A stretch of 64,000 nucleotides of DNA, taken from Natrarchaeobaculum aegyptiacum. GTDB lineage: Archaea > Halobacteriota > Halobacteria > Halobacteriales > Natrialbaceae. The position numbers and the translations under genes were made by a program. Below, piece by piece: positions 5,958 through 9,316 of this stretch. The stretch spans positions 2,666,001 to 2,730,000 of the forward strand of contig NZ_CP019893.1 in the NCBI RefSeq assembly GCF_002156705.1. The letters run 5' to 3'. The notes beneath the pieces are model-generated. The model ran no database searches. It was given only the letters and a program-made list of their open reading frames with translations, and was not told the origin of the DNA. The first letter of the stretch is position 1. The number at the start of each line of letters is the position of its first letter.

Positions 5958-6296
5958 ATGAGCGACGACGGCATCCAGCGAGCCAGCGACGTCGGCTCGA
6001 GCGACGCACCCCCGGTCGAGGAGAAGCCCTACAAGATCGTCTTCGAGGCCAACCGCTGTTTCGGTGCGGGCAAGTGCGCCGAGGTCAGCGACAACTGGAT
6101 CATGTCCCTCGAGTCCGGCATCGCCAGACCCCGCTCGTTCTTCGTCGGTGAAGACGACCTCGAGCACAACGTCCGTGCCGCAGCGGTCTGTCCGGCGAAG
6201 AAAGACGATGGCTGCATCCACGTGATCGACCGACGAACCGACGAGGAGGTCGCGCCCGACCCGCACGGTGATGGTACGCTGAGCGTCGACTGGTAA
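5958..6296 (+). CDS. Single-cluster ferredoxin ([3Fe-4S]-type spacing)
   Basis: 112 residues. The cysteines are arranged C-x5-C (CFGAGKC, residues ~34-40) and later VCPAKKDDGC near residue 80. The first cysteine group lacks the middle Cys of a [4Fe-4S] cluster, like the C-V-G-A-G-x-C pattern of actinobacterial ferredoxins that carry a [3Fe-4S] centre and serve P450s. An extra Cys seven positions after the C-P motif is unusual. The N-terminal 25 residues are acidic and disordered-looking. It lies 63 bp after the SDR gene and could be co-transcribed, suggesting a redox partnership; that link is inference. Confidence 0.75.
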   Translation: MSDDGIQRASDVGSSDAPPVEEKPYKIVFEANRCFGAGKCAEVSDNWIMSLESGIARPRSFFVGEDDLEHNVRAAAVCPAKKDDGCIHVIDRRTDEEVAPDPHGDGTLSVDW

Positions 6297-6342: not shown

Positions 6343-6447
6343 CCGCGGGAACGGACGCGAACATCGAAACGCACATTCCCTATGGGAGATACCCGTCGAC
6401 TGCTTCTGTGCGAGGGTAGCCAAGCCAGGCCAACGGCGGTGGGCTTA
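6343..6447 (+). repeat. Direct repeat, upstream copy: tRNA-Leu promoter plus 5' half
   Basis: 105 bp that recur at 6628-6732 with one mismatch (C at 6392, A at 6677). The last 38 bp (6410-6447) equal the first 38 nucleotides of tRNA-Leu(UAA); identity stops inside the anticodon loop. Past the break the sequence has no tRNA 3' half, so this copy cannot make a working tRNA. The upstream 67 bp duplicate the promoter region, so a short RNA could in principle be transcribed. Confidence 0.9.
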
Positions 6448-6627
6448 CCACGCCGGGACCTTTTGCTGCGTTCTGCTCACTGACTCGCGGGTTTCACCCG
6501 CTCGTCTACGCGCGGCGAAGCCGCGCTATCGTTCGCGTCACTGGCAAAATCTCCACCAAAAGCCATCGTCACCCCCTCCGGGGGTTCCTCGGCCCGCGAT
6601 CTCACGCCGTTCGATCGCGGTACTCGA
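6448..6627. other. Palindrome-rich spacer between the two tRNA-Leu repeats
   Basis: 180 bp with no gene. It contains three perfect stem-loops with three-base loops: GCGGGT-TTC-ACCCGC (6487-6501), GCGCGGC-GAA-GCCGCGC (6510-6526) and ACCCCC-TCC-GGGGGT (6571-6585). Similar triloop hairpins occur in the other protein-poor stretches of the window. This looks like accumulated intergenic filler or an inserted remnant that split an older tRNA copy. Confidence 0.6.
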
Positions 6628-6732
6628 CCGCGGGAACGGACGCGAACATCGAAACGCACATTCCCTATGGGAGATAACCGTCGACTGCTTCTGTGCGAGG
6701 GTAGCCAAGCCAGGCCAACGGCGGTGGGCTTA
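6628..6732 (+). repeat. Direct repeat, downstream copy (promoter and 5' half of the intact tRNA)
   Basis: Second copy of the 105-bp repeat, 285 bp from the first. It includes the real tRNA promoter region, where CCTATGGG around 6663-6670 sits about 27 bp before the tRNA, and continues into the intact tRNA-Leu gene. Confidence 0.9.
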
Positions 6733-6779
6733 AGACCCGCTCCCGTAGGGGTCCTTGGGTTCGAATCCCAACCCTCGCA
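6695..6779 (+). tRNA. tRNA-Leu (anticodon UAA)
   Basis: 85-nt gene. The acceptor stem GCGAGGG (6695-6701) pairs with CCCTCGC (6772-6778), discriminator A at 6779. The anticodon stem GTGGG/CCCGC encloses loop CTTAAGA with TAA at 6731-6733. A long variable arm (class II, about 6741-6752) and the T-arm GGTTCGAATCC (6757-6770) identify leucine. No CCA is encoded and no intron is seen. The decoded codon is UUA, the rarest leucine codon in such GC-rich genomes. Confidence 0.96.
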
Positions 6780-7229
6780 TTGCTGCTGCGAGCAATCCAC
6801 CAGCGGCTGCTGCCCATTCCAGAACCGCATCACGGTTGGCGTAGAACTCGAAGTCGGAATCGTCGAACTGTCGCTCCGTCTTCGAAGTTTTAGTTCGATT
6901 CAGTACTTATATTGGTCACTCGAGCGGACGGCACCCGAGACTCGAGTCACTCCGATACCGATGGCGGCCCTGCCTCAACTGGTTAGTTTCCTAACGTTCT
7001 TAACTGATGATTACGAATAGAACAAACGCGCACGAAAGTGCGCAGAGCCGGAGTGGCCAGTTTCAATGAACTACTCCGGCTCAACGACCTGCCCCCGCGA
7101 AGCGGGAGCAATCCATCATTGACACTGGCGAAATAAAGACCTGCCGACGTTTCGCCGACCCGGCCACACCTGTGGCTGGCACGCTCGCTGGATTGGCTGC
7201 TGCTGCGTCGGGGCCTGAACACGACACGC
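6780..7229. other. Intergenic stretch with nested inverted repeats
   Basis: No protein gene is supported. 6880-7020 is relatively AT-rich and contains TATA-like sites (TTATAT near 6907; CTTAAC at 6999). The structured segment 7028-7129 is listed separately. After it comes GCCACA-CC-TGTGGC near 7163-7176, another short palindrome. Nothing else is recognisable. Confidence 0.5.
7028..7129 (+). ncRNA. Putative structured RNA with pseudoknot architecture
   Basis: Four pairings fit in 102 bp. P1: GCGCAC-GAAA-GTGCGC (7028-7043), closed by a GNRA tetraloop. P2: GAGCCGGAGT (7045-7054) with ACTCCGGCTC (7073-7082), ten perfect pairs. P3: 7056-7069 with 7116-7129, 13 of 14 pairs, starting inside the P2 loop and ending beyond P2. 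P4: CCCGC-GAA-GCGGG (7094-7106). P2 and P3 interleave, so they form an H-type pseudoknot or two exclusive folds. A TATA-like CTTAAC at 6999 would start transcription close to 7028. No protein frame of note lies here. The strand is assumed from that promoter and the GNRA loop. A decayed mobile-element end is the main alternative. Confidence 0.45.
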
Positions 7230-7703: not shown

Positions 7704-8336
7704 TTACGATCCGGTTTCGACAATCGAACCGTCGACCTCGGCATCGACCGAGACGTCCACGGACCGACCGGTGACGTCGCCGTCGACCACTGGCCCGTCC
7801 TCGAGGATCACGTCACCCGCCGCGACGAGGTCGCCGTCGACCTCGGCACCCCCTCGAAGGAGCACGTTCCGGCCGGCCTCGAGGTCGCCGTCGACTGCCG
7901 TGCCGGAGAAGAGGACGACGTGTCCACCCGCGATGACGTCGCCGTCGAGTTCGGCGTCGTCTTCGAGGAGGACGTGACCCTCGACGTTGACCAGTCCGTC
8001 GACCTCGACACGCTGCTCGAGTCGGGCGTGTCCCAGCGCGTCGACGTTCCCGTCGACCGCGGAACCGCGTTCGAGGACGACCGATCCCTCGGCCGTGATT
8101 CCACCGTCCATGTCGACGCCCGCGGGAACCACGACGTCGTCGGCCGTCTCGAGGTCCCCGTCGCCATCCCTGGTGACGGTCGCGTTTTCGCGGTCGTCGA
8201 TCGGCCACGTCTCCTCGAGGTCGTCGGCCGTCTGTGCACTCCCGGCGGACCCAAAAATGGCGAGTGTCGCAGCCGCACTTGTCACCTGCAGAACTCGCCG
8301 ACGCGAGGGGGCTCGTCCCATCGGGTACAGCGCCAT
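7704..8336 (-). CDS. Tat-exported bactofilin-like polymer-forming protein
   Basis: 210 residues from the ATG at 8336; an alternative ATG at 8321 would start at MGRAPSRRR. A twin-arginine signal (SRRRVLQVTS, hydrophobic to about residue 35, ending SAGSAQ) precedes a repetitive domain. From residue ~65 to 205, units of about 17-18 residues recur with the pattern (D/E)GDV-x-(A/V)-x-G-x-V-x-L-x-x-G-x-x-V. This is the right-handed beta-solenoid of bactofilins. Typical bactofilins are cytosolic or membrane-bound in bacteria; here an exported form would polymerise outside or at the cell surface. It lies last in line behind the tungstate operon, with a 245-bp gap. Confidence 0.72.
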   Translation of the reverse strand: MALYPMGRAPSRRRVLQVTSAAATLAIFGSAGSAQTADDLEETWPIDDRENATVTRDGDGDLETADDVVVPAGVDMDGGITAEGSVVLERGSAVDGNVDALGHARLEQRVEVDGLVNVEGHVLLEDDAELDGDVIAGGHVVLFSGTAVDGDLEAGRNVLLRGGAEVDGDLVAAGDVILEDGPVVDGDVTGRSVDVSVDAEVDGSIVETGS

Positions 8337-8581
8337 CGGGAGACCGGATAACACATTCTCAATTTCACGGAGAAGATAGTCGAATCTGACAGGTGTATGG
8401 TCGGCATACTGGTGCCGTACGGATCGTGAACTGCCGTCGGGCGAGCACCGACCGTCGTGTGAGTCGACGAGGCGAGCAGGTTCGGCGGCAGCGGGGGCGG
8501 CGTCACCACTCGAGCGGTGCTGTGGCTGACTCGTCACGGTCTGCGATGACCGGGAGAAACTCGAGGCTGTGCCGAGAGGGG

Positions 8582-9316
8582 TCACTCGTCGGTATCGGCG
8601 GTCGAACTGGCGGTCGAGTTCGAACCGGGATCGACTGCGATCGCCCGCGCAGCCGTCGCCTTGAACGAGGCGGTGATCGGTCGTCCGGCCTCGAGTGCCA
8701 GTCGGTCCGCACTCGTCTTCGTCACGAGTGCCTGAATCGTCCGTTCCTCGGTAAGGTCGACCGTCACCCTCGTGATTGCAGTGCCGGAGTCGAGCCTCGA
8801 GACGGTGCCGGAAAACTGGTTCCGGAGGCTCGTGCCGTCTGCACGAGGTGTGTCTTCGGGATCGGTCAGGACGACTGCGTCGGAGCGGACGGCCACCTGG
8901 ACGGTGGTCGCGCCCTCGGGTGCGAGTGCACGGATCGGGCCGACGTCGGTGTCGACGGTCACGAGTTCGCCGGTTCGCTCGGTGACGGTTCCCGGGAAGA
9001 CGGATTTCGTGGCCCGTGCGACGCCGTCGAGTTCGGCCTCGTGGCGGTCGAACTGGCGGCGCAACTCGTCTGCGGTCGCAGTCAGCGTGGTGCCGCCGCC
9101 ACCGCTGCCGCCGCGCTGGCGCTCGGTGATCGATCCGACCGCGGATTCGATCTCGACGACACGGTTCTGGAGGCGGGCGTACGAGCGGCCGAGTGCCTCG
9201 GCTGCCCCGTGCATCGACCCGTGCTCGTCGATGGCCTCGAGCATCTCGATGTCGCGCCGATCGATCGTGATCCCGTCGACCGCGAGTTTCGTGCTGTAAT
9301 CCCGTTCGATCGTCAT
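8582..9316 (-). CDS. ModE-type molybdate/tungstate-responsive regulator with TOBE domain
   Basis: 244 residues. Residues ~15-95 are the winged-helix LysR-like N-terminal domain of ModE (IEMLEAIDEHGSMHGAAEALGRSYARLQNRV). Residues ~105-235 carry two TOBE/Mop-like segments (FPGTVTERTGELVTVDTDVG and FSGTVSRLDSGTAITRVTVD), the part that binds oxyanions. A Gly-rich loop (GGSGGGG) lies in the wing. It follows the transporter ATPase by 46 bp on the same strand, so the sensor is encoded with the system it should control: repression of uptake when tungstate or molybdate is plentiful. Ligand preference cannot be read from sequence. Confidence 0.85.
   Translation of the reverse strand: MTIERDYSTKLAVDGITIDRRDIEMLEAIDEHGSMHGAAEALGRSYARLQNRVVEIESAVGSITERQRGGSGGGGTTLTATADELRRQFDRHEAELDGVARATKSVFPGTVTERTGELVTVDTDVGPIRALAPEGATTVQVAVRSDAVVLTDPEDTPRADGTSLRNQFSGTVSRLDSGTAITRVTVDLTEERTIQALVTKTSADRLALEAGRPITASFKATAARAIAVDPGSNSTASSTADTDE

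What the first reader, a model, noticed from the sequence alone, without database searches (positions are those of the whole stretch)
6343..6779. Promoter and 5' half of tRNA-Leu(UAA) repeated upstream, cut exactly in the anticodon loop
A 105-bp block with one mismatch occurs at 6343-6447 and 6628-6732. The second copy continues into the complete tRNA; the first stops within the anticodon loop, the usual crossover point of tyrosine integrases in tRNA genes. Seen directly. Inference: integration/excision scar or partial tandem duplication. Normally integrases duplicate the 3' tRNA half; a duplicated 5' half with promoter is the reverse and could also make a stand-alone 5' tRNA half, like a natural tRNA fragment. 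The single mismatch implies a recent event or repeated conversion.
Basis: partly seen in the sequence, partly recalled or inferred. Interest (0 to 1): 0.7.

Follow-up and report, generated by a model that had tools for sequence, protein, structure and literature searches.

The report
Duplicated front half of tRNA-Leu gene
In this salt-loving archaeon the promoter and front half of a leucine tRNA gene stand as an extra truncated copy just upstream of the intact gene; the same arrangement recurs, with an identical junction, in several related genera, so it is a shared, recombining relic rather than a fresh virus scar.

Summary
In detail: 105 bp (promoter plus tRNA-Leu(UAA) bases 1-38) occur at 6343-6447 and 6628-6732 with one mismatch; copy 1 breaks inside the anticodon (UA|A). 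The host is a Natrialbaceae haloarchaeon. It is not a fresh excision scar of this genome. In 11 of 107 family genomes inspected (6 genera) the same half copy is followed by the same junction (..ACGCCGGGACCTTTTG, nearly invariant), a dispersed haloarchaeal repeat, then a second promoter and the intact tRNA; 19 of 107 (10 genera) show at least remnants. Most genomes have only ~60-120 bp between a ferredoxin gene and the tRNA, so the extra unit is an insertion between 5' and 3' tRNA halves. In Natrinema mahii promoter 1 is native-type and promoter 2 foreign-type; here the two are near-identical, which points to gene conversion. No integrase, element, virus or plasmid carrier was found. A stand-alone 5' tRNA-half RNA is possible, untested and disfavoured by decay in relatives. 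Noticed: about half of this genome's tRNA genes are followed by a structured unit ending in a copy of their own 3' end.

The parts
5958..6296 (+). ferredoxin-like gene (112 aa) that is the ancestral upstream neighbour of tRNA-Leu(UAA) in the family
   Evidence: ORF; in most family genomes its homologue lies ~60-120 bp upstream of tRNA-Leu(UAA)
6343..6409 (+). promoter 1 and leader, copy of the tRNA-Leu(UAA) promoter (single difference C6392)
   Evidence: direct repeat; conserved CGAAACGCACAT block of family tRNA-Leu(UAA) promoters
6410..6447 (+). truncated tRNA-Leu(UAA): bases 1-38, broken between the 2nd and 3rd anticodon base
   Evidence: same half in 10 other family genomes
6448..6457 (+). 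junction segment CCACGCCGGG, shared as YMACGCCGGG or close variants by all carriers
6458..6606 (+). spacer: member of a dispersed haloarchaeal non-coding repeat (ACCTTTTGCTGCG..GGCAAAATCTCCACCAAAAGCC..TCGTCACCCCC..GGGGGTTCCTCGGCCCG..)
   Evidence: homologous copies elsewhere in other families (L039, L040, L044); only one copy in this genome
6628..6694 (+). promoter 2 and leader of the intact tRNA-Leu(UAA)
   Evidence: direct repeat; alignment with family promoters
6695..6779 (+). complete tRNA-Leu(UAA) gene
   Evidence: Rfam tRNA 47.9 bits, ARAGORN

Best explanation
The locus carries a small non-coding insertion unit, [10-nt junction + dispersed haloarchaeal repeat + tRNA-Leu(UAA) promoter + tRNA 5' half], lodged in the anticodon loop of tRNA-Leu(UAA). 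The insertion left the old promoter and 5' half as a truncated copy next to the ferredoxin gene and rebuilt an intact tRNA under the incoming promoter, the outcome seen when a pTN3-like integrase uses a tRNA 5' half. The original event predates this species: the identical junction is shared by several genera. It was since moved between genomes and lost again, most simply by homologous recombination through the 5' half, and the two promoter/half copies are repeatedly homogenised by gene conversion, which is efficient in polyploid haloarchaea. In this genome copy 1 is most likely a transcribable but functionless relic. Shown: anatomy, shared junction, patchy distribution, ancestral spacing, intragenomic similarity of promoters, decay in relatives, absence of an integrase or element. 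Inferred: the integrase-like birth, lateral movement, gene conversion as the agent, lack of function.
For: Anatomy and identity. Same half, junction and spacer type in 11 of 107 genomes in 6 genera, remnants in 19 of 107 in 10 genera; junction columns nearly invariant against ~80% elsewhere in the spacer. Of 84 genomes with the ferredoxin gene adjacent, 55 have a gap of 120 bp or less, against 398 here. Half copies track their own genome's tRNA (AAGCCAGGCC here and in G014, AAGCAGGCC in others) and in 7 of 11 carriers promoter 1's best match is the own promoter 2. In Natrinema mahii (G127; name) promoter 1 is Natrinema-like (0.89) while promoter 2 is of the ATC/ATTCC type (0.74 to promoter 1) and the tRNA 3' half keeps a variable arm found in congeners: a unit inserted between native halves. 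Decay states: one substitution in G139 and G142, an ~87-nt hairpin insert in G022 and G045, two degenerate halves in G050. Nearest integrase 182 kb away. pTN3 precedent: PMC5495485, PMC8371274. Gene conversion in Haloferax: PMC8223754.
Against: No integrase, attP-bearing element or circular form was found, so the site-specific birth is inferred from the break point alone. A purely vertical history (one ancestral partial duplication, many losses, promoter paralogues) explains most of the pattern; only the mixed promoters of G127, and more weakly G045, speak for lateral insertion. G131 (Natrinema, no unit) also carries the ATC/ATTCC promoter type, so 'foreign' is not proven. Junction conservation could reflect selection for a terminator or small RNA rather than shared descent alone.
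Confidence: 0.55

Rival explanations
1. One ancestral partial tandem duplication in the Natrialbaceae (promoter + 5' half, with the dispersed repeat in between), inherited vertically, lost many times by recombination between the direct repeats and homogenised by gene conversion. No mobile element or site-specific recombinase was ever involved.
For: Single shared junction, remnants in 10 genera, promoter similarity within genomes, direct repeats easily lost.
Against: G127 and G045 promoter 1 matches congeners better than own promoter 2; the break lies in the anticodon loop, which needs a coincidence; repeats only in genomes scattered over 6 of 29 genera, with same-genus G003 lacking the half.
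Confidence: 0.27
2. A stand-alone small-RNA gene: promoter 1 drives a ~38-55-nt RNA made of the tRNA-Leu 5' half ending in a hairpin (GGCCAACGGCGGUGGGCUUACCACGCCGGGACC) and a U4 tract; it would act like a 5' tRNA fragment, for example on the ribosome as Val-tRF of Haloferax volcanii does.
For: Intact promoter-like block in most carriers; hairpin plus UUUU (z -2.0, 7 of 200 shuffles); ACGCCGGGACCTTTTG kept in nearly all carriers, even where the half is interrupted; precedent of a 5' Val-tRF (PMC3544259).
Against: Fold of the whole half plus tail is no better than shuffles (z -0.4); half mutated in G139 and G142, interrupted in G022 and G045, degenerate in G050 and G107; absent from most relatives; the CAA junction variant breaks a hairpin pair; TTTT also belongs to the dispersed repeat found elsewhere.
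Confidence: 0.12
3. Genuine remnant of a specific provirus or plasmid with a pTN3-like (suicidal) integrase that integrated here and was later deleted except for 180 bp.
For: 5' half of a tRNA-Leu, break in the anticodon loop and a rebuilt tRNA, as for pTN3.
Against: No integrase remnant or coding sequence in the spacer, which is a dispersed non-coding repeat; no larger element between the copies in any of 107 genomes; larger ferredoxin-tRNA gaps hold ordinary transporter or enzyme genes; no viral, phage or plasmid carrier of the half.
Confidence: 0.06

Closest known systems
pTN3-like tyrosine integrases of Thermococcales (IntpTN3; attB = 5' half of tRNA-Leu)
   Same: 5' half of a tRNA-Leu up to the anticodon loop is the shared sequence; an intact tRNA is rebuilt away from its original promoter; the original promoter with the 5' part remains on the other side.
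   Different: No integrase gene, ~180 bp instead of a plasmid/virus genome, repeat includes the tRNA promoter, haloarchaeal host, two promoters homogenised.
3'-type tRNA integration scars of haloarchaeal proviruses (e.g. Haloquadratum walsbyi partial tRNA duplications)
   Same: Partial tRNA duplication next to an intact gene (PMC3119063).
   Different: Those duplicate the 3' part downstream, with prophage genes or integrases; here the 5' part with promoter lies upstream, with none.
5' tRNA-derived fragments (Val-tRF of Haloferax volcanii)
   Same: A 5' tRNA piece could be the RNA product.
   Different: Val-tRF is a 26-nt processing product of a whole tRNA (PMC3544259); here a separate truncated gene, expression unknown.
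Split / trans-spliced tRNA genes (Nanoarchaeum equitans; from general knowledge)
   Same: A free 5' half broken in the anticodon loop.
   Different: An intact tRNA-Leu(UAA) is next door and no free 3' half exists in the window.

Membership tests
pTN3-like 5'-half integrative element | direct repeat consists of the tRNA 5' half including the anticodon region | tested here: met
pTN3-like 5'-half integrative element | intact tRNA rebuilt at the distal end, old promoter plus 5' part left at the other end | tested here: met
   clearest in G127
pTN3-like 5'-half integrative element | tyrosine integrase gene carried by, or split by, the element | tested here: not met
   no integrase between the copies; nearest PF00589 match 182 kb away
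pTN3-like 5'-half integrative element | recombination of the two sites by an integrase in vitro or in vivo | not testable with these tools
   needs experiment
Stand-alone 5' tRNA-half RNA gene | own promoter retained | tested here: inconclusive
   promoter-like block intact in most carriers, mutated in G139, broken in G160; no expression data
Stand-alone 5' tRNA-half RNA gene | sequence or structure conserved by selection independent of the tRNA | tested here: inconclusive
   junction nearly invariant but half decays in several relatives and fold of the whole is not better than shuffles
Stand-alone 5' tRNA-half RNA gene | transcript detected | not testable with these tools
   no RNA data held
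Split tRNA gene (trans-splicing) | separate 3' half gene and no intact gene | tested here: not met
   intact tRNA-Leu(UAA) at 6695-6779; no separate 3' half in the window
Typical 3'-half integration scar | copy of the tRNA 3' part at the far end of an element | tested here: not met
   no 3' fragment of this tRNA elsewhere in the window

The most novel reading that the evidence does not exclude
The 5'-half unit is one form of a wider class of tiny non-coding cassettes in haloarchaea that are bounded by copies of a host tRNA fragment and shuffle between genomes through that homology, swapping tRNA promoters or 3' trailers; the 5'-half form would in addition express a free 5' tRNA-Leu half with its own terminator.
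Probability: 0.13. Interest if true: 0.75.

Novelty: new variant of a known kind. Interest (0 to 1): 0.42.

Why it matters
It shows a tRNA gene whose promoter and 5' half can be duplicated, exchanged and homogenised over the history of a family without losing the tRNA, and it extends 5'-half tRNA insertion (known for pTN3-like integrases) to a haloarchaeal locus with no integrase. It also warns annotators: ARAGORN reports the half copy as a tRNA-Gly(ACC). The side finding, own-tRNA 3' fragments behind about half of the tRNA genes in structured units not matched in Rfam, may matter more than the finding itself.

Tried and rejected
Fold-back origin of the junction (CCACGCCGGGACC as reverse complement of the end of the half): 29% of shuffles match as well. 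Conserved RNA structure of half plus tail: z -0.2 to -0.6 for uninterrupted halves. Integrated element in larger ferredoxin-tRNA gaps: G108 and G146 hold TRAP-transporter-like genes, G005 an AI-2E-type transporter, G010 a peptidyl-prolyl isomerase, the g3 genomes a small enzyme gene, none an integrase (by eye, not profile-tested). Carrier plasmid: the seven Haladaptatus plasmid matches are whole tRNA-Leu(UAA) genes in the three records opened, not halves. Viral contigs and phages: none. Assembly artefact: excluded by recurrence. Independent duplication in each genome: excluded by the shared junction. tRNA-Gly(ACC) at 6409-6490 by ARAGORN: rejected, no Rfam match. Covariation in the second spacer hairpin: weak, 1 cell with a two-sided change in 12 sequences, and the structure I entered had one column out of register. 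Literature searches for such tRNA-flanking units in haloarchaea found no description in the held library.

Full report
Observation. The window holds two copies of a 105-bp block, 6343-6447 and 6628-6732, 99% identical, 285 bp apart; the only difference is C6392/A6677. The second runs into a complete tRNA-Leu(UAA), 6695-6779. The first stops after tRNA base 38, between the second and third anticodon base, and continues with CCACGCCGGGACCTTTTGC. ARAGORN's tRNA-Gly(ACC) on the first copy is not confirmed by Rfam. In this genome (3.93 Mb, one contig, 46 tRNA genes) tRNA-Leu(UAA) is, besides a tandem tRNA-Gly(CCC) cluster, the only tRNA gene with an upstream copy of its own 5' half.

Relatives. Search of 125 family genomes for the junction found 10 carriers in 5 genera, and inspection added an eleventh, G022. 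In every carrier the order is promoter 1 - 5' half - (two variable bases)ACGCCGGGACCTTTTG - spacer - promoter 2 - intact tRNA. The junction was not found outside the family in 392 genomes of the order, apart from one two-mismatch match in another family whose context was not read. Counting remnants, 19 of 107 genomes in 10 genera show promoter, half, junction or spacer traces. Most genomes have a short gap between the ferredoxin-like gene and the tRNA (55 of 84 at 120 bp or less; 398 here), so the two-copy state is derived and the truncated copy occupies the ancestral position. Two carriers were named through a public contig: Natronosalvus hydrolyticus (G160) and Natrinema mahii (G127).

Spacer. 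From ACCTTTTGCTGCG on, the spacer is a member of a dispersed repeat that in other haloarchaeal families lies behind tRNA-Val, tRNA-Pro and a protein gene. This genome holds only this copy. It has no integrase-like reading frame. So the unit between the native 5' half and the native 3' half is 10 nt of junction, the repeat, a promoter and a 5' half.

Concerted evolution and mixed promoters. The half copy follows its own genome's tRNA: AAGCCAGGCC here and in G014, AAGCAGGCC in other carriers. In 7 of 11 carriers the best match of promoter 1 is the own promoter 2 (identical in G014 and G054, one difference here). The exceptions inform: in Natrinema mahii promoter 1 matches other Natrinema (0.89) while promoter 2 (0.74 to promoter 1) is of the ATC/ATTCC type best matched in other genera; the tRNA's variable arm is one found in congeners. 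In G045 promoter 1 matches its congener G021 better (0.96) than its own promoter 2 (0.87). This is what insertion of a unit between the halves would leave before conversion evens out the copies. Gene conversion in Haloferax volcanii is documented as very efficient (PMC8223754), between genome copies; conversion between repeats within a locus is my inference.

Decay. G139 and G142 share a substitution of the conserved T8 in the half; G022 and G045 carry an ~87-nt hairpin insert in the D-loop of the half; G050 has two degenerate halves in tandem and G107 one. This argues against strong selection for an RNA from the half. The junction and T tract are nevertheless nearly invariant, which I cannot fully explain; common descent with the repeat's own conservation is the simplest reading, selection for transcription termination the alternative.

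Mobile-element origin. The nearest tyrosine integrases are 182 kb and 267 kb away. Larger gaps in relatives hold ordinary genes. Exact-pattern scans of viral contigs and blastn of phage records found no carrier; plasmid matches are Haladaptatus plasmids, and the three opened have complete tRNA-Leu(UAA) genes. Our anatomy matches that outcome, but the integrase, a defining feature, was tested and not found, so this is 'works like', not 'is a'.

Small RNA. A transcript from promoter 1 could end at the TTTT after a hairpin (z -2.0 for the hairpin alone, -0.4 for half plus tail in this genome). Haloarchaeal 5' tRNA fragments can act on ribosomes (PMC3544259). Without RNA data this remains open; I give it 0.12.

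Wider context. Behind 23 of 47 tRNA genes of this genome there is, within 300 nt, a copy of that tRNA's own 3' end (off-diagonal control 0.8%; this count includes two members of the tandem tRNA-Gly cluster, where the match is the next gene). The typical unit is: tRNA end, a hairpin, a partial reverse complement of the tRNA 3' end, a second hairpin with a common core (AATCAGGGAG..GACCGTGGTT in 14 units), a copy of the tRNA 3' end. In the 14 units the arms pair better with their own fragment than with those of other units (12.5 against 10.5 of 16). Most relatives have one to three such units behind tRNA-Leu(UAA), with the first hairpin differing between congeners; this genome's tRNA-Leu(UAA) has none. 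No Rfam family matches beyond the tRNA itself in the seven loci scanned. From general knowledge the E. coli tyrT repeats are the nearest parallel; not tested here. I found no evidence that these 3' units and the 5'-half unit share a mechanism.

Verdict. Real, not chance, not an artefact; a shared relic of a 5'-half insertion or duplication kept alike by recombination. New variant of a known kind, interest 0.42.

Noticed in passing
whole genome G000; e.g. L172 (tRNA-Leu(TAG), 4 units), L169 (tRNA-His, 2), L162 (tRNA-Met, 2), L144, L159: 23 of 47 tRNA genes are followed within 300 nt by a copy of their own 3' end (T arm plus acceptor strand; two of these are members of a tandem tRNA-Gly cluster), usually in a structured unit: hairpin, partial reverse complement of that tRNA's end, second hairpin with a common core, copy of the tRNA end. 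Off-diagonal control 0.8%; no Rfam match in related loci.
   Followed up: partly
downstream of tRNA-Leu(UAA) in relatives, e.g. L070 (3 units), L072, L076, L084: One to three tRNA-Leu 3' fragments spaced ~115-120 bp follow the gene in most family genomes, each like the own tRNA variant; the first hairpin differs between congeners, as if cassettes were shuffled. This genome's copy of the gene has none.
   Followed up: partly
window 6981-7150: Dispersed structured element (118 nt fold -47.7 kcal/mol, z -6.3; GCGCAC-GAAA-GTGCGC hairpin, AGCCGGAGTG..CACTCCGGCT-type hairpin, CCCGC..GCGGG hairpin); matches in 14 of 61 family genomes, 9 genera, up to 9 copies in one genome, 3 here; only a sub-threshold GA-cis hit in Rfam.
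   Followed up: partly
window 6458-6606; L039, L040, L042, L044, L045: Dispersed non-coding repeat of Halobacteriales starting ACCTTTTGCTGCG, often just behind 3' ends of genes including tRNA-Val and tRNA-Pro, many copies per genome in some families.
   Followed up: partly
L109 and L108 (G022, G045): The truncated tRNA half of two genera is interrupted in the D-loop by an ~87-nt hairpin with complementary ends (TCCCAT/ATGGGA against TCCTAT/ATAGGA); whole RNA folds z -3.4 and -3.6.
   Followed up: partly
L042 (G092): tRNA-Tyr followed ~115 bp on by its own 3' fragment and then the dispersed repeat, in another haloarchaeal family.
   Followed up: no
L181, L182, L183: Haladaptatus megaplasmids carry complete tRNA-Leu(UAA) genes with no gene annotated there in the plasmid table.
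   Followed up: no
G000:C1:1400922-1401379 (L150): Three tRNA-Gly(CCC) genes in tandem with near-identical upstream sequences, ~143 bp spacing.
   Followed up: no
window 7704-8585, - strand: Reading frame with repeats of 54 bp (18 aa) in a likely exported protein of bactofilin-like beta-helix type, judged by eye only.
   Followed up: no
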